Below are positions 1,739-22,983 of a stretch of DNA of 35,735 nt, piece by piece. Position numbers and translations under genes: made by a program. Positions within the stretch are counted from its first letter, which is position 1; the number at the start of each line of letters is the position of its first letter. Source of the stretch: a virus; the IMG/VR virus record IMGVR_UViG_3300006916_004440, positions 1 through 35,735 of that record; one strand, given 5' to 3'. The notes beneath the pieces are model-generated. The model was not told where the DNA came from. It worked only from the letters and a program-made list of their open reading frames with translations, and searched no databases.

Positions 1739-2422
1739 ATGGCGGAGGGTGGTGGTATCACAAAAAGGTCTTGCCCTTTGTGCCAACATCCGAGTCGTGC
1801 TGACTTAGAAAAAGGGCTACTGGATGGTGAAATATCACCAAAGCAACTTGACAAAGATATGGGCTGGCGACTCAATACAACAGACCGTCACTTTCGTAAC
1901 CATATGGGTCAATACCACATGGCATCGAATCCTCAGTGCAAGGTATGCGCTCACGTTGAAAGAGCCGACTTTGAGCGTCGATTCTTTAGTGACGGCGCTG
2001 AATCAGAGGCTATTGCTGAAGAACTTGGCATCTCTGAAGCATCGGTATATCATCACATGAAGCATCACTTTCAACCGTTAGTTCAAAGAAGCGCCGCTGC
2101 TGAGATAACATTAGTCGTAGGAGAAGAGATAAATGCGCTCAGGTCAAACGTCGAATTGCTCAACCATAAATTGTCTGAACTGCTCAATGAGGGCAGTGTT
2201 CATGAAGATGGCTTCGTCAAAGATGCAGTGTCACTGCACAAAGAAGTCAGAGAGTCAATAAAGGACTTGCTGAAGATGAATGAACAATGGAGTCCTACAT
2301 CTGAGAACAGTCAAGTCAATAACACAATTAACATTCTCAAAGTCGAACTTGGAAAAGAAAGCCCTGACTCATGGGCGAGAATCCGTGAGTCACTATTGGA
2401 ACACGCAGGTGATATGAATTGA
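1739..2422 (+). CDS. Tandem zinc/HTH DNA-binding protein, candidate terminase small subunit
   Basis: The 227-residue product has two related copies of a CxxC...helix-turn-helix...HxxxH module. Copy 1 has C12/C15 and H51/H55, and copy 2 has C67/C70 and histidines at 105-110. Copy 2 contains an HTH-like core, AIAEELGISEASVYHHMKHH. Residues 125-185 look like a helical or coiled-coil segment (VGEEINALRSNVELLNHKL) and the tail is acidic. DNA-binding HTH plus an oligomerising helix is the usual plan of small terminase subunits, and terminase large subunit lies downstream in the same series, so that role is a reasonable inference. A transcriptional regulator is the alternative. The ATG has no good Shine-Dalgarno site, unlike its neighbours. 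The end overlaps the next ATG by one base. Confidence 0.85.
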   Translation: MAEGGGITKRSCPLCQHPSRADLEKGLLDGEISPKQLDKDMGWRLNTTDRHFRNHMGQYHMASNPQCKVCAHVERADFERRFFSDGAESEAIAEELGISEASVYHHMKHHFQPLVQRSAAAEITLVVGEEINALRSNVELLNHKLSELLNEGSVHEDGFVKDAVSLHKEVRESIKDLLKMNEQWSPTSENSQVNNTINILKVELGKESPDSWARIRESLLEHAGDMN

Positions 2423-7036: not shown

Positions 7037-8208
7037 TGGGCGACGTTTACGTTCTTCGTAAAAGTGTGGGGTTACAACTTCAATCTGCCCCTTTACCGGG
7101 GGGTATGAATCTTGTCCAAAATGTAGGTTCATCCAGCGGTGACGCTTCTTATCTTCCCGGTCAAAGTCAAATGTCACAAATGACTCGGACACCAAAAGAT
7201 GCATCGGGTAATTTTCAATTTCAAGCACCTACTTTCGATAACCAAGGAACTCGTAGATTAGCCGATATTTATGGGACTACTGGTATGAACCAGCGAATGG
7301 ACTTGAATGAAAAAGTCAGAGATGCCGCCCCTGATTCAGAAGAAGGCTTTAGAAACGCTATGGCTCAGCAAAAAGTGTTTGAAACGGCTGGTCAGGCTGG
7401 AGAAGCGGCACATAATAAAAGAGACGCTGACGCAACCGCACTCGGTATTTTAGCAGGGGCGATAGGTCTTGCAAATGCTGGCGCTGCTGGGGCAGATGCG
7501 CTTACTGGGATGATGGGCGCTGCTGGACAATATCAAGGAGCATCACAGTTAGTTCAGGGAACAAGCCGTGGTGCTGGAGAGCGAGCAGCGAGACGTGCTG
7601 CAAACAAAGTCGGTGTGACTCAACCTCAAGTTGCTCAGCCTACTCCTCAAGTTGCTCCTCCCACACGAAAACCAGTAATGGTCGAGGGCTTAACAGACGG
7701 TAGCCAAGTTCCTATCAATAGTGAAGAAGCACGAAACAGGGCTTCGAGAGACACATACAATCCATCAGACGCTGCTCAGGCATTAGGTCATTATGGGGCT
7801 GATGCTGAAGGCAAACTTCAACAAACACAACAACAAGCAATGAACTTGATTGGTGTTACGGGTAATCCACTTCAAATGCCATCAAGCCCTACCCCAATCA
7901 AGGATGGACAACCTTACTTGAGACTCACTAATTTAGAAGGAGAGCCAATGCAACCACCACCTGCTACTGCTTCGCCAACTCCTGAGCCTCCTCAAATGTC
8001 TGATAAAAAGGTAGGTAGCATAATCGCTAATAACACAACTGGTAACAATGAGGAAGCAGAGTTAAACAGTGACGCTGGCAATACAATTCAACAAAGTCTT
8101 GAAAGTGCAAAAGCGGGACAAGAAAAGGCTGCGAATGCATCAATGGCATCGGCATCATCAACAAACAAAAAAGATGACCAAAGAAAAATGCTCGTTGGGG
8201 TGGTCTGA
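7036..8208 (+). CDS. Ala/Gly/Gln-rich hypothetical protein, possible membrane-active segment
   Basis: The 390-residue product is unrecognised. Residues about 134-164 form a long Ala/Gly/Leu stretch (TALGILAGAIGLANAGAAGA) that could insert into a membrane or pack as helices. The rest is low complexity, with Gln, Pro and Ala repeats such as TQPQVAQPTPQVAPP. The C-terminal 80 residues are polar and end in a short hydrophobic LVGVV. The start overlaps the previous stop by one base (TAATG), and GTAGGTGG precedes it. The stop overlaps the terminase start by one base. A virion-internal protein ejected with DNA is possible, but this rests on composition only. Confidence 0.75.
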   Translation: MGDVYVLRKSVGLQLQSAPLPGGMNLVQNVGSSSGDASYLPGQSQMSQMTRTPKDASGNFQFQAPTFDNQGTRRLADIYGTTGMNQRMDLNEKVRDAAPDSEEGFRNAMAQQKVFETAGQAGEAAHNKRDADATALGILAGAIGLANAGAAGADALTGMMGAAGQYQGASQLVQGTSRGAGERAARRAANKVGVTQPQVAQPTPQVAPPTRKPVMVEGLTDGSQVPINSEEARNRASRDTYNPSDAAQALGHYGADAEGKLQQTQQQAMNLIGVTGNPLQMPSSPTPIKDGQPYLRLTNLEGEPMQPPPATASPTPEPPQMSDKKVGSIIANNTTGNNEEAELNSDAGNTIQQSLESAKAGQEKAANASMASASSTNKKDDQRKMLVGVV

Positions 8209-9692
8209 TGGCTAAGCGAGAAGAAGAAGAGCAAATGAAAGAACTCATCGTTGAGATGGACAGAAAGATGTCTCAGCGCTCTTTCAAGTATTTCTTTGAA
8301 ACAGTGCTGGGTTTTGACTACGCTGACCACCACGCTCAGTGGGATGAGGGCTTGGAAGAGAATCGTTACTATTGTGTCAAAGCGTCTCGTGACCACGGTA
8401 AGTCTGTATTCTTCATGTCGTATGCTCTTTGGTTAGCGGCGTTTAATCCCGACAAGCACATCATGATTTTTTCACACTCTCTTGAACAGACGCTGGAGCA
8501 CATGCGTTTCATTCGTAACAACATCGACGGAGCACCTTGTTTGCACCATCTTAAGCCCGGTGGTATACCGTGGCGAAAGACCTACTTTGAGTTCACCAAC
8601 GGTAGTCGTATCATGGCAAAGTCGGTTGGTGGAGGAACTCGTGGTTTCCACCCTGACGTTGTTGTATGCGATGATATTCTGTGGGGAACAACAGGTAGTG
8701 AGTTGCAACGAGCAGCCGATTGGTTCTACGGTGTATTGCTTCCAGTTCTTCACCACACAGGTAAAATGATGATGGTAGGAACTCCGTTCAGTTACAACGA
8801 CTTGTATGCTGAGTTGGAAAAGAAAGAGACGTTCCGAGTTGAGACATATCCCGCTATCAATCGAGAGGGTGAACCGCTGTGGCCTCAGCGTTGGAGTCTT
8901 GAAGCACTTGAGCAACGACGACTCTCAATGCCAGCGATTCAGTTTACTCGTGAGTATCTCTGTGAGCCAATCCATGACGTAGCCAGTATGTTCCCGATGA
9001 CGATACTGGAGAAGGCTCGTGACCCTGAGTTGGTTCTTCTTGACCATGCTGAACATGAGTATGATGAAGATGGCAACAGCATGGGTCTGTTCGGTCAGCA
9101 CTTTATTGGCTGGGACACAGCAATTGCATCGGACAAGAATGCTGACTTTACTGCTATGACTGTTCTACGAACTCTACCTGATGATAACGTCAAACAGATT
9201 GTCGGTGTTGTGCATGAGCGTGGTATGAGTTCTGTGGCACAGAAGCGACAAATCATTCTATTGAATCAACGATTCCAACCCGACTTGATTGAACTTGAAG
9301 GCAACAACTTCCAGCGTATGTTTGCTATGGAACTCAAGGATATGCGAGAGGATATTCCTATCCGAACCTTCATGACAACCAAGACAAGAAAGGAAAGCCT
9401 CTTCATGTCTTTGCTCATGGCTTTTGAACAGGGCCAAATCAAAACACCTTATGGTAATGAAATAAGTAGGCAGTTTACTCACAAGTTAGAAGAGGAATTG
9501 AACAGGTTTGGAATGCAAAAGAACGGGAGACTGGAAAGCGTGGGCGTGCATGATGACTTGGCTATGTCGCTGGCGTTGGCAAACTGGGGAACAAAAGAGT
9601 TCAAAGGCTCGATTGTTCTCCTCGATGACATCTTGCCGGGTCTTGACAACATTATCACTGGAAAACCGAGTAGAGGGTGGATGATACCATGA
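8208..9692 (+). CDS. terL: Terminase large subunit (packaging ATPase/nuclease)
   Basis: The 494-residue protein has the full terminase layout. The ATPase part carries a Walker A-like loop, ASRDHGKS (59-66), a Walker B strand ending in VVVCDD (151-156) and a GTP coupling motif (191-193). The nuclease part has the three expected acidic sites of an RNase H-like fold: GWDTA (D303), IELEGNN (E362/E364) and VHDDLAM (D449/D450). This enzyme pumps viral DNA into the prohead through the portal and cuts the concatemer. Length is normal for the family. The start is the ATG overlapping the upstream stop (TGATG). Its 3' end overlaps the next gene as ATGA. All residues needed for both activities appear intact. 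Confidence 0.97.
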   Translation: MAKREEEEQMKELIVEMDRKMSQRSFKYFFETVLGFDYADHHAQWDEGLEENRYYCVKASRDHGKSVFFMSYALWLAAFNPDKHIMIFSHSLEQTLEHMRFIRNNIDGAPCLHHLKPGGIPWRKTYFEFTNGSRIMAKSVGGGTRGFHPDVVVCDDILWGTTGSELQRAADWFYGVLLPVLHHTGKMMMVGTPFSYNDLYAELEKKETFRVETYPAINREGEPLWPQRWSLEALEQRRLSMPAIQFTREYLCEPIHDVASMFPMTILEKARDPELVLLDHAEHEYDEDGNSMGLFGQHFIGWDTAIASDKNADFTAMTVLRTLPDDNVKQIVGVVHERGMSSVAQKRQIILLNQRFQPDLIELEGNNFQRMFAMELKDMREDIPIRTFMTTKTRKESLFMSLLMAFEQGQIKTPYGNEISRQFTHKLEEELNRFGMQKNGRLESVGVHDDLAMSLALANWGTKEFKGSIVLLDDILPGLDNIITGKPSRGWMIP

Positions 9693-10591
9693 AAGAAAAG
9701 AAAATGGGTGGAAAGAAACACGGTATGGTGCTGATTATCTCAGTGGGTAAGAAGGGTGACAAAGACCCTATGCACGCCGCTGACCCTGATTCAAAGAAGA
9801 AAGGAATCCGCACAAGAGATGACCATTATGGAAAATACGGCACAGCCGATGAAGCATCAGGAAAAGAAGATTTTAGAGAAAAATTAGGTGCAGATGTTGA
9901 TAGATACGTTGGGGTTAAGTCAATAAAAGATATTCATGAAAAACACGGTGACCCATACGCTGGTATGACTCCTGAACAGGCTGACGAGTTCAATCGTTTG
10001 CTTGCAATGCATAACGAGTTTGAAAAATTAAATCAACCTGAACCTGAACCTGAACCTGAAGCAGTGCAAGAATCTGTTCCCGCTAAGACTAAGGAAGAAA
10101 ATCTTTACGATGCTATCTTTAATGAAATGAAAGCAAAGGCTCTGAAAAAAGCCAGCATTGACGACTTGTTTCAAGAAGCCAGTTCTCTCAGAGAAGCAGG
10201 TGATAAAGCAACAGCAAGACAGTTTTCAGATGTAGCCTCCGCTATGCAACGAGCACCAGCACTACGTCAAAGTTTGATTGACCGTTTTGGGACTCAGGCT
10301 ACCAATGCGTTAGCCATGACTTATCCTGAAATGGCATCAGGTGAAGGTATGGGTGAAATGATGTTCCAAGAAGGTAAAAACAATCCTGACTATATCGAAG
10401 CACGTTCAGACCCTTCCTATCTTGGTGAGGGTAGAAAGCCATTTATGAGTGCTATCAGTGCTTTAGCACGAGGTAAACAAAGAGTAAACACTCAAGAGTT
10501 GGCTGCTCAAGAAGCACTTCAACGACTTATTGCTGAAGACCCATCAAGATTTTTTGCTGACCGAAGGGTGATGGGTGAGCAAGGTGAGTGA
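9689..10591 (+). CDS. Hypothetical protein downstream of terminase
   Basis: I choose ATG at 9689, which overlaps the terminase stop as ATGA and has GAGGGTGG about 9 bases upstream. A GTG four codons earlier is less well placed. The 300-residue protein begins with a lysine/glycine-rich segment containing one short hydrophobic strand (GMVLIISVG). It has an acidic Glu-Pro repeat near residues 115-125, then a helical half (about 135-295) with segments such as LYDAIFNEMKAKALKKASID. No domain is recognised. Coupling to terminase suggests a packaging or head accessory role, as inference. It overlaps the HMG-CoA lyase gene by 17 bases. Confidence 0.75.
   Translation: MKEKKMGGKKHGMVLIISVGKKGDKDPMHAADPDSKKKGIRTRDDHYGKYGTADEASGKEDFREKLGADVDRYVGVKSIKDIHEKHGDPYAGMTPEQADEFNRLLAMHNEFEKLNQPEPEPEPEAVQESVPAKTKEENLYDAIFNEMKAKALKKASIDDLFQEASSLREAGDKATARQFSDVASAMQRAPALRQSLIDRFGTQATNALAMTYPEMASGEGMGEMMFQEGKNNPDYIEARSDPSYLGEGRKPFMSAISALARGKQRVNTQELAAQEALQRLIAEDPSRFFADRRVMGEQGE
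10037..10060 (+). repeat. Four tandem CCTGAA hexamers
   Basis: Four exact tandem copies of the hexamer CCTGAA lie within the coding region and encode Pro-Glu repeats, with one more Glu-Pro at the edge. The unit keeps the reading frame, so copy number changes would only lengthen an acidic linker. Confidence 0.9.
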
Positions 10592-11429
10592 TGTAAACCT
10601 CTACGAAGTTGGCCCTCGTGATGGTCTGCAAAACATAGAGGAGTTTACACCGACAAATGAAAAAATTGACTTGATACATCGACTCTACGATGTTGGTTTA
10701 AAGCAAATGGAGATTACATCATTTGTTCATCCTAAGTATGTTCCAAACATGGCTGACGCTGAAGAAGTGTTTCAGGCTACTCGTGACATTGACAACTTTG
10801 CTGTTCTTGTCCCAAATCAAAGAGGTATGGACAGAGCAAAGGCTGCTGGGGCTAAAAAAGTAAATGTCTTTTTTTCAGCATCTGACAGTTTCAATCAAGC
10901 CAACTTAGGAAAAAACATGGATGAAATTGTAGGCGAGTTGGACTCAATGCTCCAAGACACTGATACAAAAAATGTCAGAGCATATGTTTCTTGTGCTTTT
11001 GGAGCACCCAATGAAAGTGTCAATGAGCGTAAGGTGCTGGAGGCTATGCAAGCGGCTCAGCACATGGGTGATACTGTAGTTCTTTGCGACACGGTTGGTA
11101 AGGCACATCCTTCTATTATCTATCGAACTCTTGAGTTGTCGAGGCACATTGATGCTGACATAGCGTTGCATTTGCATCACCGAAAGGACAAGAAAGACAA
11201 CATGTTTGCTAACATTCAAACTGCTTTGGAATGGGGTATCACTGAATTTGATACCAGCATTGGCGGTTTAGGCGGTTGTCCTTTTGTTCATGGTAGTGGT
11301 AGCAATCTTTCAACAAACGACATGGTTCGATTTTTGGACAAGATGGGGCATGAGACTGGATTGGATATTGCTGAACTGAATGAAATTGCAAAAATCTACA
11401 GTAAGCCTCTTCTGAGTAGCAAATGGTAA
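10575..11429 (+). CDS. HMG-CoA lyase family protein (virus-encoded)
   Basis: The 284-residue protein is a clear member of the HMG-CoA lyase branch of the DRE-TIM/HMGL-like TIM barrels, whose known enzyme splits HMG-CoA into acetyl-CoA and acetoacetate. It has EVGPRDGLQN (R15, D16), EITSFVHPKYVPNMAD with E46, CDTVG (D172), HLH (H199, H201), the active-site loop GLGGCPF with C235, and GSGSN (N244). These match the base, metal ligands (D, H, H, N) and catalytic cysteine of the human enzyme. The stretch after HLH is a lysine-rich HRKDKKDN in place of the usual DTYGQ and is about three residues longer. Length is slightly under the usual ~300. GTG at 10575 follows AGGGTGAT; a second GTG at 10584 is possible. 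A metabolic gene inside a virion operon is unexpected. Confidence 0.9.
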   Translation: MSKVSDVNLYEVGPRDGLQNIEEFTPTNEKIDLIHRLYDVGLKQMEITSFVHPKYVPNMADAEEVFQATRDIDNFAVLVPNQRGMDRAKAAGAKKVNVFFSASDSFNQANLGKNMDEIVGELDSMLQDTDTKNVRAYVSCAFGAPNESVNERKVLEAMQAAQHMGDTVVLCDTVGKAHPSIIYRTLELSRHIDADIALHLHHRKDKKDNMFANIQTALEWGITEFDTSIGGLGGCPFVHGSGSNLSTNDMVRFLDKMGHETGLDIAELNEIAKIYSKPLLSSKW

Positions 11430-11453: not shown

Positions 11454-12686
11454 ATGTGGGGGTCAGCGTTGATTGAAGATGACTTTGGTGAAGTCGTATC
11501 GTTTACGCCTGTTCCTTACGAAGAAGTCAAGCCAATTAAGAAGCAACATCACTTTGCTCCTAATGGAGACGGTTGGTTTGAAGCAACACTCGGTTGCAAT
11601 GCTGAAACATTGGTAAAGCGTTTGCGAAAAGCACGAAGAGCAAACAAAGACAATCGTGATGAGATTGACAACTTCATCAAAGATGTCCGTATGATTAAGT
11701 CTCTTGAAACCGATATGACAATCAATTCACTTTCTTGGGCCGATGGCTATGAAGACATCATCAAGCGGCTCGGTCTTGATGACCGTAAACTCAAGAGTCT
11801 ACGCAAGTTTGGTGAATCTCGATGTGTTAATCTTGAGCGTGCATGTATGCTATGGGATAACGCTGAACAGACGCTCAAAATGTTGGATGAGCATGAAGAT
11901 GTTTGGGGAGTTGAAGAGCAACAGGCTTGGGCTGGTGCTATGCGAGACAGAAGCGAGGCTCGTAAAATGTGGTCTTCTACATTACAACCAACGGACAAAC
12001 TGAAGAAAGCCGAACAAGATTTTCTACAGTTTGCCGCAAAAGAACTGATGGAAAAAGGGCCAATGAAGGTCACAACCATACGCAGTAATTTTTCTGATGC
12101 TGGTATGTTAAAGAAAGCACAAACAGACAGAAAACTCACAACACTCATGAACATGTATGGTGAAGATTACGATATTGTCAAAGCACCTCGTCGTGGTGAA
12201 TATGTTATCATCGCCAGTGACGGTTTGGTAATGAAAGATGTGTGGTCGTATAGCGCTGGTTTTATTGATGCTGATGGCTACATTACAATCACAGAGCGTG
12301 GTGAACCTCGTGCTGGTATGATAGCAACTGGTGATAGAGGTAAAGTGCATTGTGAAGATTTGTTCAAGACATTAGAATGCGGTGTTCTCTCTGTTGATAA
12401 CAAAGTCTACAAAGATTCTCAGAGAAGCCAACATCGTTTACAATTCTACTCAAAGGCTGATTTACGAAAGTTACTTGATGGGGTGTCCCCTCATCTTAAG
12501 ATGAAGTCTACTCAAGCAAAGGCTGTTTTGGCTTATCTTGACGAGAAAGACAAGACTCGTAAAGAAGAACTCAAACGCTTGGTGCGCTATGAAAACTGGA
12601 AAGATGACAGAAAAAAATCTCGTGCTTTGTTAGATGGTTGGGGAATTGACGCAGATACAATCGGTAAATACAGGGAGGGACTATGA
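11454..12686 (+). CDS. LAGLIDADG-motif protein with winged-helix-like region
   Basis: The 410-residue protein has one LAGLIDADG-type motif, SAGFIDADGYI (267-277), followed by about 100 residues typical of a single homing-endonuclease domain (a charged middle, then LQFYSKADLRKLLDGVSPHLKMKS). Residues about 185-255 look like a winged helix (KELMEKGPMKVTTIR through a GEYVII strand). The first 180 residues are helical and unrecognised. One motif implies a homodimer if it is a nuclease. The acidic residues of the motif are kept, so activity is possible, but co-option as a DNA-binding regulator, as in WhiA, is the alternative. GAGGT lies 7 bases before the ATG. It follows the HMG-CoA lyase gene and overlaps the portal gene as ATGA. 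Confidence 0.85.
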   Translation: MWGSALIEDDFGEVVSFTPVPYEEVKPIKKQHHFAPNGDGWFEATLGCNAETLVKRLRKARRANKDNRDEIDNFIKDVRMIKSLETDMTINSLSWADGYEDIIKRLGLDDRKLKSLRKFGESRCVNLERACMLWDNAEQTLKMLDEHEDVWGVEEQQAWAGAMRDRSEARKMWSSTLQPTDKLKKAEQDFLQFAAKELMEKGPMKVTTIRSNFSDAGMLKKAQTDRKLTTLMNMYGEDYDIVKAPRRGEYVIIASDGLVMKDVWSYSAGFIDADGYITITERGEPRAGMIATGDRGKVHCEDLFKTLECGVLSVDNKVYKDSQRSQHRLQFYSKADLRKLLDGVSPHLKMKSTQAKAVLAYLDEKDKTRKEELKRLVRYENWKDDRKKSRALLDGWGIDADTIGKYREGL

Positions 12687-14449
12687 TGGCTGATGAAGAG
12701 AAAGGTATTGTTGGTCGATTCCTTAGCACGTTAGCCAGTCCTTTCAGAAGGAGAACAACACCTCAACCTCAAATGCCATTGTATACCACTGGTATACAAG
12801 AGCCAGTCTTAGCGCAAGGTATTACTTTACCAGCGCTGTATGCTGTTTCAAATGAGAATCTTATTCTCAGAACTGTCATCACAAAACTCGGTCAGGAGAT
12901 ATTCCGTAGAGGTTACTTTTGGGAAAAGAAGTTTCGTAAGAAGTGCGTTGAATGTGAAGAAGAGTATCAACACGAGGTTACTGAATGCACATCCTGTGGT
13001 GGGGAGGTTCGTGACCCTGACCCTGAACAAGTCGTATACGGTAAATGGTTGTTGCAACAAGAGAACTCTATGGAACAAAGTTTCATGCAAGTTCTTAGTG
13101 AAATTGAACGTGACCTCAACATTGTGGACGATGCGTTTCTTCTGATGATTAAGGAGTATTACGTCGATGAAAAAACTGGAGAAGTGCAGTTTTACAGAAT
13201 CAAAGAATTGATTCGTGGTGACCCTATCTTCATGAGAATTATCGCTGATAAACGTGGTGTCCGTGGTGGTCGATACAAAATTTGTCGTATTCATCGTGAC
13301 CAAGTTGCTTATCCCGGTCAAGAGCCAAAGTGCCAAGTCTGTGGCTCTCGTTTGGTCGATGCTCACTATGTCAATATGGCAGGTTCAGGTAAGAATCAAT
13401 ACTTCATGAAAGGCGAGGTGCTTCACCTTTCAAAATATAATCCCGGTAAATTGTATGGTCGTGCTCCTGTCAATACACTTTGGCGACAGGCCATGACGCT
13501 GACCGCTATGGACAATTACATCTACACAGCCTATCAGAAGCGTAGAATCCCAAAAGGTATTGTGAGTGTCACCACTGACAACCTTGAATCAATGAAATCG
13601 TTTTGGAAGGGTGTTGATGAAAAGATGGAGCGTGACCCTCACTACATTCCGAAAGTTGGTATTGAGTCAGCATCGGGTCGTGGTGGTGTCAATTGGATTA
13701 AGTTCATGGACACACTTGAAGAGATGCAATACATCGCTGTGCGTGATGAAATACGAAACCGCATCGCTGCTTTCTATGGTGTCTCTTCTATCTTTATGAT
13801 TGACAACGGTAAGGCTGGTGGTTTAAACAACGAAGGTCTACAGATTCTTGTAACAAACCGAGCAGTGGAGTATGGACAGAAGGTGTATACTGAAGTTCTG
13901 TTCCCTCGTATGCTCAAAGAGTTGGATGTCACAGATTGGAAACTCACACTTTATCCAAACGAAGAAGAAGATGAAATCACAAGACTGCGCCGTGACGAGA
14001 TGGAAGTTAATCTTGCTCAGCGTATGGCTATGCTTGGTTACAAACCTGAACTGATGGAAGAGGGTGAACGTGACATTCGCTTCATTTATCGAAAGCAAGA
14101 GGAGCAACAAGGCGCTCAACCACCAGCAGGTGGAATGCCACCGGGCGGTGGAGGTATGCCGCCGGGCGGAGGTATGCCACCAAGACAAGGCATGCCACCA
14201 ATGCAAGGCGGTATGCCTCCTCAGATGATGCAAGGTGGTCGAATGCCTCCTCAGATGATGCCTCCATCTCAGCCCGGTGGTGAAGGCATGGGAATACGAA
14301 CTCCACGCTCACCAGCAAGACCTCAGCAAAGGGGTAGCCCCGGCGCTGGTGCTCCTGTAACCAGTGTTCAACAACGAGGTTTGCAACCAACCCTCCCTCA
14401 GCAAAATGCATCGAGATTACAGAACAGTAGAAGGTTGAGAGGACAGTAA
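12683..14449 (+). CDS. Portal protein with two zinc-ribbon insertions
   Basis: This 588-residue protein forms the head vertex ring through which DNA passes. The portal core is recognisable from the N-terminal ENLILRTVITKLGQEIF region, the wing/stem region (KGEVLHLSKYNPGKLYGRAP), and the helix with AAFYGVSSIFM (362-372), which corresponds to the usual FGVP-type portal segment. Unusually, two four-ligand metal sites interrupt the N-terminal half: C88/C91 with C102/C105, and C201/H204 with C217/C220. Residues about 475-545 are a Met-Pro-Gly repeat tail, not part of the conserved fold. ATG at 12683 gives the ATGA overlap; ATG at 12686 has slightly better spacing from GGGAGGGA. Its place between terminase and the capsid genes fits. 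Confidence 0.92.
   Translation: MMADEEKGIVGRFLSTLASPFRRRTTPQPQMPLYTTGIQEPVLAQGITLPALYAVSNENLILRTVITKLGQEIFRRGYFWEKKFRKKCVECEEEYQHEVTECTSCGGEVRDPDPEQVVYGKWLLQQENSMEQSFMQVLSEIERDLNIVDDAFLLMIKEYYVDEKTGEVQFYRIKELIRGDPIFMRIIADKRGVRGGRYKICRIHRDQVAYPGQEPKCQVCGSRLVDAHYVNMAGSGKNQYFMKGEVLHLSKYNPGKLYGRAPVNTLWRQAMTLTAMDNYIYTAYQKRRIPKGIVSVTTDNLESMKSFWKGVDEKMERDPHYIPKVGIESASGRGGVNWIKFMDTLEEMQYIAVRDEIRNRIAAFYGVSSIFMIDNGKAGGLNNEGLQILVTNRAVEYGQKVYTEVLFPRMLKELDVTDWKLTLYPNEEEDEITRLRRDEMEVNLAQRMAMLGYKPELMEEGERDIRFIYRKQEEQQGAQPPAGGMPPGGGGMPPGGGMPPRQGMPPMQGGMPPQMMQGGRMPPQMMPPSQPGGEGMGIRTPRSPARPQQRGSPGAGAPVTSVQQRGLQPTLPQQNASRLQNSRRLRGQ
14131..14275 (+). repeat. Degenerate Gly-Met-Pro-Pro coding repeats
   Basis: Inside the portal gene, a stretch of imperfect units related to GGTATGCCACC encodes a run of G(G)MPP motifs with variable Gly and Gln spacers. 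The units are degenerate rather than exact. They form a flexible C-terminal tail that would lie outside the folded portal ring. Confidence 0.8.
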
Positions 14450-16045: not shown

Positions 16046-19000
16046 TTGATTGAAACGCCATCCGATTGGTATTACAGAAGTCGTAACGAACTTCTCAAGT
16101 CAATCATAGATGGTATCAACATCCCTAATGCTGTTGGAGACTTTCACTTTGCTAAGATGAATTTAGAAAATCATGGCATTCATATTGATGCGACACCTAT
16201 GGATGAAATCTGTGATTCGTTGCTCAAGCAAGCCAAGAAAAAGCGACACCGATTCGATAAGAAACAAAAGGGTGTGTTCAGTTTTGAACGAGGCGCAGAG
16301 ATGCGAATTGGTAATCATCCGTGGCAAGGACGTATGAGAGAGCGCCCCTTGTTTGATTTGGCCTCTTCGTTCCCTCATGCTGAGTTCGCTCAGGGGCAAC
16401 ATTATCCTGAGTCGCATCCTCATCATAAAAACCATCATCCTCTACGTCAGAAGCACGCCATAACTGGTAGGTCAAAAATGACAGAAAAGTTACGACGCTT
16501 CTACTTAGCATCTGAGCCGAGTGGTGATAGTTTGGCTAAACTATACAAGGAAGCCGAAAAAGGCAAAGAAAGTTATGAGCAAAAGCAAAACAACTTGTCG
16601 GTAATTGGTAAGACAAAGTTCGATAACGCAATAGGTAAGGATGTTAAGCACTACAATCATCTTGGGCCTTTGAAAGACAACTATGCTTACGACTTTTATC
16701 TCCGAGACTTTGAACGATGGAAAAAAGAAAACCCAGCAGCCGTCAATGAAATGATGGACAAATACCCCATACCCGCTGAGCACGAGCACGCTCTACAATT
16801 GATGCACTTTGAAGATGCTGCTGACAGATGGGAAGGCGACCAGTATCACAGTGAGATGTATGACCCAAAGGAGGGTATGACAGAACAAGAGATTCAAGAC
16901 CATCTTTACAGCGGTGCGAGCGAGGCTGACCTTGAGGCAAAACCGCTTAGAGAAGCACTTGGGTATGAGGGCTATCTCTACGGTTTGGAATTTTTATCTC
17001 CGCTTGAAAGACAGAAAGTTATCGACCACATCCACGAAAAAGGCACAGATGCTCACGATGTTCAAAACATTGACTTGGGCGGTGGTGTGAACATTAGCGC
17101 TGGGCGTATCAAACGAAACCTCGCTCAGCGATTTACTGGTGAGTTTGACCACTACATGCGACCACAGCACATTCATGGTGCGAATGTTAGGAGACACTAC
17201 GAAACAATTGATGACATTCCAAACGGAGAACAGAGATTCGTTAATCAATCCTTGATACAGGCGATGCAAGACATCCCTTTTGATAGCGATAACGAGTCTA
17301 CAACATCTGTTTATGACAACCTTCTTGCTGAATACAATGAACTTCTTACTGAGCACAAGGATGCTCTTGATGTTGGTGCATTTGAAAAACCACCTGATGA
17401 AGATGAAGATTTCATCAACCAACTACCAGTTAGAGCGATGCGACAAGGTGCAAAAATCCACGAAGGTGCAAAGGCACACCCAGTTCATCATGGTGAGGGT
17501 ATTCTTCAAGAGTTGAAGGTGCTTGATGAAAAAGAGCAAAATTTTGTAGATGTAAAAACAATGCTGGCTCTTATGGGTTACAATGAAGACATGACTGAAA
17601 TGGACTCACACCCTCTACTACTTGGGTATGAAGGGCCACTTGTTTCTCAGACTAAAATCAAGCAAATCATAGATAGAGCAAAAGAGTTGGCTAAGGAAAA
17701 CAAGGAACAGAAGCCAGTTCGTAATCATGATTGGTTTCATCATGGAGGCTCAAACGGTTACGACATCACTGATATTCCAGTAGATGAAAGAGAACATTAC
17801 CTCACAGACAATATGGGTAACATCATTGGGCTTGGTGCTCACTTTGCTGATGAGTTTCATCATCAAGGTGGTATGGGTAGAAACGTCTTGCATTATTTGG
17901 AGATGATACATGACTCCTTACCAAAAGACGCTCAGGGTTTTTCCGTCATCGGTAAAGTTGAGGGTAATGAGTTTCTTCCTAATCCAAAAACAATAGGGCT
18001 TTGGGGTCGATACGTTCCTTCTCTGTATTCAAAACTCATAAAAGAACACATTGGAGGACATGGTATCTCTTCTCTGTGGGATTCTTCAAATCATATTCAT
18101 CGTAAACCAAGAAACAACAAGAACATGCCCTTTCGACAAGCATCTTCTTTGAACGGAGAATACGCAAATGCAATTCGTTACATGACCAAAAACGAAAGAC
18201 AGATTGCCTACAACGGCCCTGCTTGGAATGTCCATCAAGATGGTTCAAACCACTTTACCTCAAATCCAATCAACGCCATAGGTGGTATGGGTATGCAACT
18301 CACACAATCGCATGTAAACTCAGTAAAATCCCATCGTAACGCAACAATGGGTGGTCGTCTTCATCCTCCACACGAGCCTATGAAGAAGAATCGTCGTCTT
18401 AGCCGAAGCAATTTACCTGCTAATGCAAGGCTGAGTCATAATGAAAATAGCAAAGAACTGTTCCGTATTCATCAAGGACATAAGACAAAGAAAGATGATG
18501 TAAGAGGAATGCTAACTGAATCACAACGAAATACTGTTCAAGAATTGGATGATGAGTATGATGATATTAGCATCGCTATAGAAGGTATGGAACAGGGTAG
18601 CGATGAATACGCACAAGCCAACGCACGACTGCATGAAATAGAGGCTGAAATTGATGACATCCACGCACTGGCCCAGCCTGATTTTGTTAATCAGTTTGAA
18701 CATGTATCAAATCATTCAGAAATAAAAGACGAAACCGACCTAAATGCTATTTTGGCTATGGCTCAGAAAATAAAACCTGAATATGAAAAAGCCGACCCTG
18801 ATGCTTTCAACCCTGAGTTCCCTGACAAGTTTATAGCGAATACTTCTCGTTTGTTCAAGGATGCTAACCTTGCTTTGTTGCGATTACCTCATGAGACGCA
18901 TGGCTTAGAAACACATGGCTATGGTGAAACCATGAAAGAGCAAAAAAGCGCCAGTGAATTGCTTTCTCAAGGTGAAGATGTTGTATCGCCTCATCACACT

Positions 19001-21559
19001 ATAGCAAGCGTTTTGGGCGCTGCTGGTAAAGAAATTCTACCTACACACTCTCCTGAAAAAGTTCGCTCTCTTCTTAATTTACCAAACGATGATGCTCACA
19101 ATCACATGATTACAAGATTGCTTGAGGGTATGGATGCGCCTGTCAAAGTTCTACGACATGGTGATTTGTTAGGCTCAGGTGTTAGTTTTGCTGGTGAGGA
19201 AACAAATGACATGTTTACCACTGACGACCATCATGGGACTATAGATGCCATGTTCAATAACCACAAAAGAACACGCACGCCAGCAAAAGAAGATGGGACT
19301 AAACATAATATCGAAAATAAGCAGTTTGCACAAAAATTCAGAAAAGAATATGGTGGTCATCTTGAATTTATGGAACAATTATTCAATCCAAGACAACAAA
19401 ATTCATATCAAACTCATGGCTTATCTCGTGTGCAATTAACTGATTTTGCCGATGAAAGATACAAAAGAGGAAAGAAGGGGTTTATGGCTACTGGAAGTTT
19501 GAAGGGTTTCGCTGGTGGTCTAAACGAAGCCAAGAGTAGAGTTCACGACCTTATTGTATTCGACCCAACAAAAGCAAAGACGATGGAGAAGGTAGTAGCA
19601 CCCTCTACGAAAGTCAAAGAGGCAAACTTTGGTATGTTCCCAATTCACCCCGCTGTGGGTGGTCGAGGCGTTAGTGTCCAAGATATGTTTGTGTCAGGCA
19701 CAATGGACAGCGGTTACGCACAATTGCATCCATCTGTTGGTGCTGAGTTCCCCGGTAACAAAACCATTATGGTAGGCACAAACACAGAGCCTGAGTATTT
19801 GCACAGCATTCCTGAAGAGTTAATGACTGCTGTTCATGGTCAAGATGCAGTTCAACAAGTATTGTCATCAGGCTATCAAGTTCCTGTCGCCACTACCAAC
19901 ATGAATCGTCCTGACATCACTGGTCTACCTCCAAACATTGACGCTATGAACATCTCGACAAGCGACCCATCTGAAACACTGATGGTGCTGATGAATCCTG
20001 ATGCTTTATTGAAAGAAGACAAGGCTCGTCCTCCTCCTATTCTACCGATGCATCGTATCTTCAGTCTCAAAGATTTTGAAGCACTACGAGGATTCAGCGG
20101 TGATTGGGTTGTCTCAGCATTCTACGATGGTGAGCGTATGATAATCATGCGAAAGGGGAATCGCTTTACTGCTTACGACGGTGACAACAACGCAGTGCCA
20201 ATAAGCGAAGAAAACAAAGCAAGTCTCAAAAAACTGACTGAGAAGAACTACATTATCGACGCAGTGCAAATGAAAGACAACATCCACATCATTGACCTGC
20301 TTGACTACGATGACACAAATGTGTCAGATATGACAGTAAGAGAGCGACTCAAAATTCTAAGGGGTCAGTTCGACAGTCACGATAACGTCTTAGTTCCCGG
20401 CCCTTATGATACTCGCATTACAGAAGATGGTGGGCTTCAAGCCACAGTAGAAAGTCTACAGGAAGAACACAAACAACTGCTGCTCCGTGATGGTAACTCA
20501 ACTTACATGCGAGGAGAGCGTAGACATCCAAAGTGGTTCTTGCTTCGTAAGAACAAGAATGTCAGTTTCATTATCTTGGATGCACGAGGTAAAGGGCCAT
20601 ACACCTATCGTTTAGGAGCAGGGCCACTCGACTCAGAAGGCTTTGGTAATCGAGGTGTTGATTATGATGGTAAGCAGTATCTCGATGTTGGGACTATCAA
20701 AAGTCCCAAGCCATTCAAAGAAGGTGATACGGTTTCCATATCTGTATCGGGTGTTAAAAAGCGGAATCGAAACGGCAAAACAATCTACGATGTAACCTCT
20801 TCAAAGATAGTAGGAGAGGCTGATGCTGAAAGTCCAGCGAGTCTTGAGACGCTATCTCTACTGGCAAAATCTCACCCAGTTATTCCAGTTCCATACGATA
20901 TTACTCTCAAAGATGACAGAATATCCATTGTTTTTGATGGCTTAGACGAAGTTGTTTACAAGGCAGAATCCAGTCATACTGGGAATTGGGCGCACTCACC
21001 ACACTCTGTTATGGGTGAGTTGAGCCAGTCTGACTACACGCTTCAACTGGCTGAAAGCGTTAGACCGCTATGGAATCAGGCTGTGTCGTTGATGCTCAAA
21101 GGAGTCGATAAGAAGGATGATACTGTGGTTGAAGAGATTATTCCTGACAAGACATATCACTCCATGCATTCTGAAAAAGACAGAAGGCACAGCGAAAAAC
21201 AATCGGCTGGTATCATTGATGCCGATGATGAAATGAACATCATGAAGCCCAGTATGAAAACAATGCTCAAGACAATAACTCGTATCGCTGATTTGACAGA
21301 ACGGCTTGATAGTCTACAAAAAGAGAAGATGACTGGTGGTGCGAGTAGAGGTGGTTTAGGAATTGATGTTGGTAGTGCCATTGAATCACCACGAGGGCCA
21401 ACCAGTCTGACCAGCGAAGAAAGTGTCCCCGACTGGGACATGATTGAGCGCCCGACAGAGGATTCGGAAAAAGAATACGAGCATGTGCGTAACAAACGCT
21501 TAGAGCGAAAAAAACGCAAGCAGCACAGCGATTTAGACGATGAGGATGAAGAAGAGTGA
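16046..21559 (+). CDS. Giant 1837-aa protein with C-terminal catalytically dead DNA-ligase-like domain
   Basis: The frame has a stop just upstream, so TTG at 16046 is the first possible start; GAGGGGG lies 7 bases before it. Most of the protein (about 1-1330) is unrecognised, His-rich and mixed alpha/beta. Residues about 1335-1610 resemble an ATP-dependent DNA ligase nucleotidyltransferase plus OB-fold: VSAFYDGER (1357-1364, motif I), YIIDAVQM (from 1402, motif III region), a VRERLKILRGQF helix, LLLRDGNSTYMRG (motif IV region) and KWFLLRKNK (1496-1504, motif V), then an OB-like YLDVGTIKSPKPFKEGD. The nucleophile lysine of KYDGER is Phe1359, and the motif III and IV acidic residues are changed. 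Ligation is therefore not expected; nucleic-acid or nick binding is possible. The last 120 residues contain a coiled coil and an acidic tail. It lies between portal-linked genes and the protease. Confidence 0.88.
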   Translation: MIETPSDWYYRSRNELLKSIIDGINIPNAVGDFHFAKMNLENHGIHIDATPMDEICDSLLKQAKKKRHRFDKKQKGVFSFERGAEMRIGNHPWQGRMRERPLFDLASSFPHAEFAQGQHYPESHPHHKNHHPLRQKHAITGRSKMTEKLRRFYLASEPSGDSLAKLYKEAEKGKESYEQKQNNLSVIGKTKFDNAIGKDVKHYNHLGPLKDNYAYDFYLRDFERWKKENPAAVNEMMDKYPIPAEHEHALQLMHFEDAADRWEGDQYHSEMYDPKEGMTEQEIQDHLYSGASEADLEAKPLREALGYEGYLYGLEFLSPLERQKVIDHIHEKGTDAHDVQNIDLGGGVNISAGRIKRNLAQRFTGEFDHYMRPQHIHGANVRRHYETIDDIPNGEQRFVNQSLIQAMQDIPFDSDNESTTSVYDNLLAEYNELLTEHKDALDVGAFEKPPDEDEDFINQLPVRAMRQGAKIHEGAKAHPVHHGEGILQELKVLDEKEQNFVDVKTMLALMGYNEDMTEMDSHPLLLGYEGPLVSQTKIKQIIDRAKELAKENKEQKPVRNHDWFHHGGSNGYDITDIPVDEREHYLTDNMGNIIGLGAHFADEFHHQGGMGRNVLHYLEMIHDSLPKDAQGFSVIGKVEGNEFLPNPKTIGLWGRYVPSLYSKLIKEHIGGHGISSLWDSSNHIHRKPRNNKNMPFRQASSLNGEYANAIRYMTKNERQIAYNGPAWNVHQDGSNHFTSNPINAIGGMGMQLTQSHVNSVKSHRNATMGGRLHPPHEPMKKNRRLSRSNLPANARLSHNENSKELFRIHQGHKTKKDDVRGMLTESQRNTVQELDDEYDDISIAIEGMEQGSDEYAQANARLHEIEAEIDDIHALAQPDFVNQFEHVSNHSEIKDETDLNAILAMAQKIKPEYEKADPDAFNPEFPDKFIANTSRLFKDANLALLRLPHETHGLETHGYGETMKEQKSASELLSQGEDVVSPHHTIASVLGAAGKEILPTHSPEKVRSLLNLPNDDAHNHMITRLLEGMDAPVKVLRHGDLLGSGVSFAGEETNDMFTTDDHHGTIDAMFNNHKRTRTPAKEDGTKHNIENKQFAQKFRKEYGGHLEFMEQLFNPRQQNSYQTHGLSRVQLTDFADERYKRGKKGFMATGSLKGFAGGLNEAKSRVHDLIVFDPTKAKTMEKVVAPSTKVKEANFGMFPIHPAVGGRGVSVQDMFVSGTMDSGYAQLHPSVGAEFPGNKTIMVGTNTEPEYLHSIPEELMTAVHGQDAVQQVLSSGYQVPVATTNMNRPDITGLPPNIDAMNISTSDPSETLMVLMNPDALLKEDKARPPPILPMHRIFSLKDFEALRGFSGDWVVSAFYDGERMIIMRKGNRFTAYDGDNNAVPISEENKASLKKLTEKNYIIDAVQMKDNIHIIDLLDYDDTNVSDMTVRERLKILRGQFDSHDNVLVPGPYDTRITEDGGLQATVESLQEEHKQLLLRDGNSTYMRGERRHPKWFLLRKNKNVSFIILDARGKGPYTYRLGAGPLDSEGFGNRGVDYDGKQYLDVGTIKSPKPFKEGDTVSISVSGVKKRNRNGKTIYDVTSSKIVGEADAESPASLETLSLLAKSHPVIPVPYDITLKDDRISIVFDGLDEVVYKAESSHTGNWAHSPHSVMGELSQSDYTLQLAESVRPLWNQAVSLMLKGVDKKDDTVVEEIIPDKTYHSMHSEKDRRHSEKQSAGIIDADDEMNIMKPSMKTMLKTITRIADLTERLDSLQKEKMTGGASRGGLGIDVGSAIESPRGPTSLTSEESVPDWDMIERPTEDSEKEYEHVRNKRLERKKRKQHSDLDDEDEEE

Positions 21560-21603: not shown

Positions 21604-22983
21604 GTGTTGCGAACTCAACGGAGAAATGGTATCGAACTCCTCAAAGGGGTCAATGACCTCATTGTGGCAGGGTATGCTTCAGTTGAACTCGTAGACAAGC
21701 AAGGAGATTTAATTACAAGGGCTGCATTGAAAGACGCTTTCAAAAAATTCATGTCAGACCCAAAGTATCGAAACGTCCAATTAGCACATTCAAATATACA
21801 AGTAGGAGAAGTAATTTCAAATTATACAGATAATCAAGGGAGGTTGTGGAAAAGCGAAGTAGACGATGCTGGAATGTTTGTTGTAGTAAAATTAAGAAAC
21901 GACATCGAGAAGGCACGAGAAGTAGCAAGTGAAATCCGAAAAGGAAACCTAACAGGATTCAGCATCGGAGGACAAGCATTCAAGCGAGTAAACAAAAGCG
22001 ACAAATCCCACGGCTCATATCAAGAAATATCAAAACTGGAATTACACGAAATCACAATATGCGAAAAAGGAATTAACCCCGAAGCCACATTCAACATACT
22101 AAAGGAAGACAAAAACAAGGTGAACAAAATGACCGACGATGTAATGGAACAAATGAACGATGTATTGACCCGACTTGAGGGACGACTTGACTCTATGGAG
22201 AAAGGAGAACTACCTCAAGCCTTGAAAGACGCTCAGAAGAAAAAGAAAGAAGAATCTGACGACGACGACAAGGACATGGAAAAGAAGGGTAACTACATGG
22301 AAGACAAAGAAGACAAGAAAGATGAGAAGAAAGACGACAAGATGAAGTCTGAGTTCTCTGACGTTATTACTTCTGAATATCTCGACTGGATGGAAAACAC
22401 TCTCAAATCCGCTGGAGTAGACACTGGCGCTGCTCGTGCTCACTTTGATACAGTAGCAAAAGCAAACCTCGGCTCTACCCCTGAAGCAATTGGCGATGGT
22501 GCTGATTACTTTGCTGGACAAGTCAAGGGTCGTGCTCAAGAAGGAGGCAACCCATCTACCAACGCTATCCAGCGTGCTGGACTAAGCGGTGGTGGAAGCA
22601 TCGAAAAGTCTGACTTCATTACTGGTCATGACATCGACGCTCATCGAATCGAAGAGGCATACGGAATCTTCAAGGCTGCAAAGCAAGAAGAAGAGTTCCG
22701 CAAGTCCCTTGAACAAAACTTTGAAGGTCGCTACGCCCAAGAATCCGCTGCTGAAATCGCAAAGGCTCAAGCAGCAGACTTCGACGCTCGTGGGCCTCTT
22801 GGTGAGGTCATGAAGGCTCTTGGAGCACTCAATGAGCGAATCGACACTCTTTCCAGTGGCGTTGGCGAAACAATCGCTAAGTCAGCCACCCCAACCGTTG
22901 AAGTGCCAAGCACACAAGACTTGGCAAACATGAGTTGGGACGAAGTTCACCAACTCGCTGGAGGACTATACCGCAGTGAGTGA
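21604..22983 (+). CDS. Prohead maturation protease fused to scaffold
   Basis: The 459-residue protein has an N-terminal serine protease of the HK97 prohead/XkdF type (about 1-168), followed by a scaffold (about 176-459). His62 in LAHSN and Ser120 in LTGFSIGG are the expected catalytic pair. The segment KLELHEITICEKGINPEA is the usual strand at the end of the fold. The scaffold half is acidic and lysine-rich (210-250), then helical, and ends in MSWDEVHQLAGG. The protease cuts scaffold and capsid proteins before DNA packaging. GTG at 21604 lies 8 bases after AGGAG; TTG at 21607 is an alternative. A second start inside the frame probably makes scaffold alone. The capsid gene follows directly. 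Confidence 0.92.
   Translation: MLRTQRRNGIELLKGVNDLIVAGYASVELVDKQGDLITRAALKDAFKKFMSDPKYRNVQLAHSNIQVGEVISNYTDNQGRLWKSEVDDAGMFVVVKLRNDIEKAREVASEIRKGNLTGFSIGGQAFKRVNKSDKSHGSYQEISKLELHEITICEKGINPEATFNILKEDKNKVNKMTDDVMEQMNDVLTRLEGRLDSMEKGELPQALKDAQKKKKEESDDDDKDMEKKGNYMEDKEDKKDEKKDDKMKSEFSDVITSEYLDWMENTLKSAGVDTGAARAHFDTVAKANLGSTPEAIGDGADYFAGQVKGRAQEGGNPSTNAIQRAGLSGGGSIEKSDFITGHDIDAHRIEEAYGIFKAAKQEEEFRKSLEQNFEGRYAQESAAEIAKAQAADFDARGPLGEVMKALGALNERIDTLSSGVGETIAKSATPTVEVPSTQDLANMSWDEVHQLAGGLYRSE
22117..22123 (+). promoter_or_regulatory. Internal ribosome binding site for scaffold
   Basis: AAGGTGA lies five bases before an in-frame ATG (22129) at the junction between protease and scaffold domains. It is as good as the sites before neighbouring genes, which is unusual for the middle of a coding region. 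Confidence 0.7.
22129..22983 (+). CDS. Nested scaffold protein (internal in-frame start)
   Basis: An ATG corresponding to residue 176 of the protease-scaffold protein has its own AAGGTGA site and would yield a 284-residue scaffold starting MTDDVMEQMNDV. The product has a helical start, a Lys/Asp/Glu-rich segment, an alpha-helical middle and the C-terminal MSWDEVHQLAGG motif. Scaffold made from an internal start within a protease gene is known in lambda (Nu3 within C) and relatives, and it supplies the excess of scaffold over protease needed for prohead assembly. The exact placement at the domain boundary makes this convincing, though expression is not shown. Confidence 0.65.
   Translation: MTDDVMEQMNDVLTRLEGRLDSMEKGELPQALKDAQKKKKEESDDDDKDMEKKGNYMEDKEDKKDEKKDDKMKSEFSDVITSEYLDWMENTLKSAGVDTGAARAHFDTVAKANLGSTPEAIGDGADYFAGQVKGRAQEGGNPSTNAIQRAGLSGGGSIEKSDFITGHDIDAHRIEEAYGIFKAAKQEEEFRKSLEQNFEGRYAQESAAEIAKAQAADFDARGPLGEVMKALGALNERIDTLSSGVGETIAKSATPTVEVPSTQDLANMSWDEVHQLAGGLYRSE

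What the first reader, a model, noticed from the sequence alone, without database searches (positions are those of the whole stretch)
10575..11429. Virus-encoded HMG-CoA lyase homologue inside the virion gene series
The protein keeps all recognised active-site residues of HMG-CoA lyase (R15, D16, E46, D172, H199/H201, C235 in GLGGCPF, N244), so it looks like a working enzyme rather than a relic. It lies in the same direction and overlaps the gene that follows terminase. HMG-CoA is the precursor of mevalonate and thus of archaeal membrane lipids. If the host is archaeal, splitting HMG-CoA could divert lipid synthesis or release acetyl-CoA during infection. The HLH loop differs from cellular enzymes (HRKDKKDN in place of DTYGQ), hinting at altered substrate contact. 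The fold and residues are seen; the metabolic role is inferred.
Basis: partly seen in the sequence, partly recalled or inferred. Interest (0 to 1): 0.85.

Follow-up and report, generated by a model that had tools for sequence, protein, structure and literature searches.

The report
HMG-CoA lyase in marine archaeal viruses
This is a gene for an enzyme that splits HMG-CoA, carried by tailed viruses that probably infect abundant marine archaea; its presence there was already reported, but it turns out to be an old, widespread viral version with a rebuilt loop beside the active site.

Summary
Window 10575-11429 (+) encodes a 284-aa HMG-CoA lyase (HMGCL) homologue. It passes NCBIfam's HMGCL cut-off, is predicted to fold with high confidence and matches HMGCL structures best. 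All eight published catalytic and Mg-binding residues are present.

The contig is a fragment of a magrovirus-type tailed virus; the literature assigns such viruses to Poseidoniales (Marine Group II archaea). HMG-CoA lyase in magroviruses is already on record (Xu 2023; ICTV Aoguangviridae profile 2023), so the bare finding is not new.

What I can add: (1) it is not sporadic: 18 of 24 related contigs of 73 kb or more carry it. (2) All viral copies form one group, separated from sampled cellular HMGCLs by a long, supported branch. (3) It is under strong purifying selection (dN/dS 0.025-0.077). (4) Every viral copy lacks the Asp that follows the metal-binding HxH in all 80 cellular enzymes compared, and viral copies share fixed changes such as V169 and N97. 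(5) None of four partner-enzyme domains searched for is present. (6) Its place in the terminase-portal block is specific to two subgroups.

Most likely it cleaves host HMG-CoA into acetyl-CoA and acetoacetate late in infection. A shifted substrate is the main rival.

The parts
10575..11429 (+). HMG-CoA lyase homologue, 284 aa (GTG start; codon 4 at 10584 is an alternative start)
   Evidence: start discussed from relatives
11169..11177 (+). HLH (H199-L200-H201), Mg ligands equivalent to human His233/His235
   Evidence: 90/90 viral and 80/80 cellular sequences have both His
11178..11213 (+). remodelled loop after HxH (residues 202-213, HRKDKKDNMFAN) in place of the cellular D-T-x-G-x-A-L-A-N
   Evidence: Asp after HxH is 80/80 in cellular, 0/90 in viral; loop length 6-12 residues in viral, always 8 in cellular
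11265..11285 (+). GLGGCPF signature with catalytic C235 (human Cys266)
   Evidence: C235 90/90 viral
9677..10591 (+). 304-aa ORF of unknown function between TerL and HMGL, found at this place only in near relatives
   Evidence: no family match; synteny
8208..9692 (+). terminase large subunit
   Evidence: PF17289, phrog_38
11454..12686 (+). 410-aa ORF with an HNH endonuclease profile match and a LAGLIDADG-like stretch (GFIDADGYI)
   Evidence: phrog_5046 1.7e-8; sequence
12683..14449 (+). portal protein
   Evidence: phrog_18178 4.5e-64
21604..22983 (+). prohead serine protease
   Evidence: PF04586
23014..24198 (+). major capsid protein, closest named relatives in haloarchaeal tailed viruses

Best explanation
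It is an auxiliary metabolic gene of a magrovirus (tailed virus assigned to Poseidoniales). It encodes a Mg-dependent TIM-barrel HMG-CoA lyase, placed here among the morphogenesis genes. Shown: the sequence, predicted fold, active-site residues, purifying selection, the single viral group, and the absence of the partner domains searched for. Inferred: the enzyme cleaves host HMG-CoA to acetyl-CoA and acetoacetate (Mg held by D16, H199, H201, N244; R15 and C235 in catalysis). By doing so late in infection it removes HMG-CoA from the mevalonate route to membrane lipids and/or completes leucine breakdown, handing acetyl-CoA to host energy metabolism.
For: NCBIfam HMGCL above its cut-off; all 28 diverse viral members match that family, with other families far weaker. 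Foldseek: the top 14 PDB hits are all HMGCL (TMq 0.83-0.89), next best about 0.76, on a model of pLDDT 92.6. The eight published critical residues (PMC6941031) are conserved in 89-90 of 90 viral sequences. dN/dS 0.025-0.077. Present in 18 of 24 magrovirus-type contigs of 73 kb or more, with chaperonin as positive control 24/24. No HMG-CoA reductase, enoyl-CoA hydratase, ACP_syn_III_C (HMG-CoA synthase type) or CoA-transferase domain in those 24, so the substrate would have to come from the host. Magrovirus identity: MCP nearest haloviruses; the closest 107-kb relative has family B polymerase, ERCC4 nuclease and TCP-1 chaperonin, as reported for magroviruses (PMC10160649, PMC5332604, PMC10768690).
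Against: The Asp-Thr after HxH, invariant in all 80 cellular enzymes compared, is not kept in the viral ones; position 169 (human Ser201 by alignment, three residues before Asp204) is Val in 90/90 viral versus Ser in 70/80 cellular, and N97, F237, S241 are also fixed or nearly so in viruses. This could mean another substrate. No activity, expression or host-metabolite data. Host HMGCL and leucine pathway were not examined. The mevalonate-drain and leucine-completion readings are not told apart by anything here.
Confidence: 0.58

Rival explanations
1. A viral subfamily of the HMGCL family with a shifted substrate: same metal site and same carbon-carbon cleavage chemistry, but acting on a different acyl-CoA or 3-hydroxy acid, the new specificity set by the rebuilt loop after HxH and by the viral-fixed residues inside the barrel.
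For: Loss of the Asp of DTxGxALAN in 90/90 viral sequences; viral-fixed N97, V169, F237, S241; long branch (1.06, SH-aLRT 99) between viral and cellular groups; shorter C-terminus (median 43 versus 56.5 residues from N244 on).
Against: All published catalytic and metal residues are kept, and so is the GLGGCP signature in nearly all. The loop varies in length and letters among viruses, which fits relaxed packing as well as a new pocket. HMGCL is by far the closest family.
Confidence: 0.3
2. The protein serves mainly as a virion or packaging component, its place between terminase and portal reflecting that role.
For: Lies in the terminase-portal block and overlaps the preceding ORF in this subgroup.
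Against: In most relatives the gene lies outside that block; catalytic residues are fully conserved; it lacks the N-terminal AWxLLK-type tag seen on many other proteins of these viruses.
Confidence: 0.06
3. A recent host-gene capture or assembly chimera without function.
For: The gene is absent from some related contigs.
Against: 80 viral loci from many samples, deep viral diversity and one viral group, purifying selection, G+C like its neighbours, distances that follow those of conserved viral genes (Mantel r 0.50 and 0.46, 0 of 2000 permutations as high).
Confidence: 0.01

Closest known systems
HMG-CoA lyase listed as auxiliary gene of magroviruses (Xu et al. 2023, PMC10160649; ICTV Aoguangviridae profile 2023, PMC10768690, virus YSH_150918)
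   Same: Same kind of enzyme in the same kind of virus; very probably the same viral family.
   Different: Those texts give only the annotation (leucine degradation; modulation of host metabolism) and, in Xu et al., call such genes sporadic. The loop change, the single viral group, the frequency and the lack of partner enzymes are not described in the parts I read. The exemplar records were not held, so identity to them was not measured.
Cellular HMG-CoA lyase (human HMGCL 2cw6; B. subtilis 1ydo; EC 4.1.3.4)
   Same: TIM-barrel fold (TMq 0.87-0.88), all eight critical residues, GLGGCP signature.
   Different: About 37-43% identity; no Asp-Thr after HxH; V169 in place of Ser201; shorter C-terminus.
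HMGL-like protein of Klosneuvirus KNV1 (A0A1V0SKU2)
   Same: The only close structural match among predicted viral proteins in BFVD (TMq 0.86).
   Different: 29% identity; giant virus of eukaryotes; not examined further.
Homocitrate synthase, isopropylmalate synthase, 4-hydroxy-2-oxovalerate aldolase
   Same: Same metal-dependent TIM-barrel superfamily.
   Different: Scores far below those families' cut-offs and TMq at most about 0.76.

Membership tests
HMG-CoA lyase | HMGL-like TIM-barrel domain above curated cut-offs | tested here: met
   PF00682 110.5 bits (cut-off 29), NF004283 258.8 bits (cut-off 246)
HMG-CoA lyase | Catalytic residues Arg41, Glu72, Tyr167, Cys266 (human numbering) | tested here: met
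   R15, E46, Y137, C235 in 89-90 of 90 viral sequences; list from PMC6941031
HMG-CoA lyase | Mg ligands Asp42, His233, His235, Asn275 | tested here: met
   D16, H199, H201, N244
HMG-CoA lyase | Fold closest to solved HMG-CoA lyases | tested here: met
HMG-CoA lyase | HxH-D-T-x-G motif (invariant in my cellular sample, but not on the published list of critical residues, so not treated as defining) | tested here: not met
   Asp 80/80 cellular, 0/90 viral
HMG-CoA lyase | Cleaves HMG-CoA to acetyl-CoA and acetoacetate | not testable with these tools
   needs an enzyme assay
Homocitrate/isopropylmalate synthase or 4-hydroxy-2-oxovalerate aldolase | Reaches the family's curated cut-off | tested here: not met
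   27-54 bits against cut-offs of 229-599
Magrovirales | HK97-type capsid module related to haloarchaeal tailed viruses | tested here: met
   MCP best hits HVTV-1, HCTV-1, HCTV-5; portal, protease, terminase
Magrovirales | Own replication set with family B polymerase and chaperonin, replication and virion modules in opposite directions, genome about 90-110 kb | tested here: met
   In the nearest 107-kb relative (HMGL 99% identical), not in the window itself
Magrovirales | Similarity to the ICTV exemplars OR863078, PP497039, ON649702 | not testable with these tools
   records not held
Magrovirales | Host is Poseidoniales | not testable with these tools
   host genomes were out of reach; the assignment rests on the literature

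The most novel reading that the evidence does not exclude
Marine archaeal tailed viruses own an ancient, near-core branch of the HMG-CoA lyase family, distinct from all cellular enzymes sampled, whose active-site surroundings were rebuilt for a different acyl-CoA substrate or for escape from host regulation.
Probability: 0.28. Interest if true: 0.7.

Novelty: new member of a known kind. Interest (0 to 1): 0.45.

Why it matters
[quoted passage not shown] An enzyme kept under strong selection in most long contigs of their virus lineage implies that control of HMG-CoA, the entry to archaeal membrane lipids and an end point of leucine breakdown, matters to infection. Because the gene is a single free-standing enzyme, the question can be answered with one purified protein.

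Tried and rejected
Other aldolase/synthase families: rejected. Chimera or relic: rejected. Virion-packaged enzyme through the N-terminal AWxLLK-type tag: no HMGL carries it. Operon partner that would reveal the substrate: neighbours differ between clades and are unknown or structural. Mevalonate or leucine-pathway partner domains in the virus: none of four searched for in 24 long contigs. Haloarchaeal plasmid homologues: the 60 plasmid hits listed were all bacterial. Magrovirus exemplar records: not held. Two magrovirus papers (Philosof 2017, Prabhu 2025): not held. PHROGs has no family for this protein.

Full report
Observation. The ORF at 10575-11429 encodes 284 residues. It is an HMG-CoA lyase by Pfam, NCBIfam above the curated cut-off, PDB sequence search (best hits B. 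subtilis 1ydo 1.1e-50 and human 2cw6 8.9e-50) and structure: an AlphaFold2 model of pLDDT 92.6 whose 14 best PDB matches are all HMG-CoA lyases (TMq 0.83-0.89), followed after a clear gap by other members of the superfamily (about 0.76). Homocitrate synthase, isopropylmalate synthase and 4-hydroxy-2-oxovalerate aldolase are far behind.

The virus. The window is an IMG/VR record of 35.7 kb with terminase, portal, S78 protease, HK97-type capsid protein and tape measure. The capsid protein's nearest named relatives are haloarchaeal tailed viruses. The contig with the nearest HMGL (99% identical) is 107 kb long, has its replication genes and virion genes in opposite directions, and carries family B polymerase, ERCC4 nuclease, C5 methylase and a TCP-1 chaperonin. 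Chaperonin was found in 24 of 24 related long contigs. These are marks of magroviruses in the literature (PMC5332604, PMC10160649, PMC10768690), assigned there to Poseidoniales; I could not test the host directly.

Already known. Xu et al. 2023 list HMG-CoA lyase among magrovirus auxiliary genes and place it in leucine degradation (PMC10160649). The ICTV profile of Aoguangviridae names it as an example of host-metabolism modulation (PMC10768690). So the presence of this gene in an archaeal tailed virus is not new.

How common and where. A search of IMG/VR with an alignment gave 91 confirmed relatives, of which 80 were kept. Among 50 contigs of 40 kb or more chosen through two other genes (a helix-turn-helix protein and the capsid protein), 33 carry the gene; among the 24 of 73 kb or more, 18 do. 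This is probably a lower bound, since some contigs end near the expected place. The sample is of the records nearest the window. The gene lies between terminase and portal only in the window's subgroup and in a second subgroup (L103, L108, L109, L111, L114, L117); in most others it lies some kilobases upstream of the conserved cassette that precedes the virion genes, or near tail genes and chaperonin. Its distances follow those of two conserved viral genes (Mantel r 0.50 and 0.46, 0 of 2000 permutations as high), so it seems to have travelled largely with the viruses.

Evolution. In a tree of 62 viral and 42 cellular sequences built without the loop columns, viral and cellular sequences are the two sides of one branch (SH-aLRT 99, length 1.06). 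Purifying selection is strong (dN/dS 0.025, 0.044, 0.059 and 0.077 for four relatives; two more were saturated).

Active site and loop. The published critical residues (Arg41, Glu72, Tyr167, Cys266; Mg ligands Asp42, His233, His235, Asn275; PMC6941031) correspond to R15, E46, Y137, C235, D16, H199, H201, N244, present in 89-90 of 90 viral sequences. In contrast the Asp and Thr after HxH are present in 80 of 80 cellular enzymes; that Asp is in none of 90 viral ones, and the stretch up to the Asn of ALAN is 6-12 residues instead of 8. Further positions fixed in viruses are N97 (90/90; cellular mostly Ala) and V169 (90/90; cellular mostly Ser, human Ser201), and nearly fixed are F237 and S241. 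The match V169 = human Ser201 is by its distance to Asp204/D172 in the alignment.

Mechanism. Shown: a complete metal and catalytic site in an HMGCL fold under selection, in virion-gene context here, without the partner domains searched for (no enoyl-CoA hydratase, HMG-CoA reductase, ACP_syn_III_C or CoA-transferase domain in 24 contigs). Inferred: HMG-CoA from the host is cleaved to acetyl-CoA and acetoacetate. Whether this starves lipid synthesis, completes leucine breakdown, or both, is open. The main rival is a shifted substrate.

Limits. The sequences of magrovirus exemplars and two key papers were not held. Loop conservation in cellular enzymes rests on the 80 genome loci most similar to the viral protein. 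The start codon may be codon 4, since relatives have ATG there. Late expression is inferred from gene order alone.

Noticed in passing
L093-L172 and L348 (e.g. L137:8726, L121:8922, L110:243-3214, L348:3054-3827): Many otherwise unrelated proteins of these viruses share an N-terminal motif like MxxFDxAWxLLK: 124 proteins in 74 sequence clusters at 33 loci by a strict pattern, 0 of 870 ORFs on bacterial contigs. It may be a shared sorting tag, comparable in idea to the capsid-targeting sequence of phage T4 internal proteins; HMGL itself lacks it.
   Followed up: partly
L344, L345 (replication module of the 107-kb relative G001): A repeated upstream element like TTGATATATAAAG (up to 12 pattern matches, nearly all in the replication module and all on one strand, none in the window) precedes several replication genes and looks like an archaeal TATA box of early promoters.
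   Followed up: partly
window 1739-2422: A conserved protein with two repeats of CxxC...HxxxH and helix-turn-helix similarity lies upstream of the virion genes in many relatives; a zinc-binding regulator or small terminase subunit is possible.
   Followed up: no
window 11454-12686; L108, L109, L114, L117: An ORF with homing-endonuclease-like features (HNH profile, GFIDADGYI) sits next to HMGL in both subgroups where HMGL lies between terminase and portal, in different order; it may have helped move the gene.
   Followed up: no
window 16046-21559: A 1837-aa ORF between portal and protease has a weak match to ATP-dependent DNA ligase near residues 1404-1497 (1.5e-4, below the cut-off).
   Followed up: no
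CAKLQH020000001.1:232537-233370: Records named Acinetobacter phage MD-2021a (328 and 378 kb) hold an HMGCL homologue annotated leuA_2, 35% identical; possibly bacterial DNA in a phage record.
   Followed up: no
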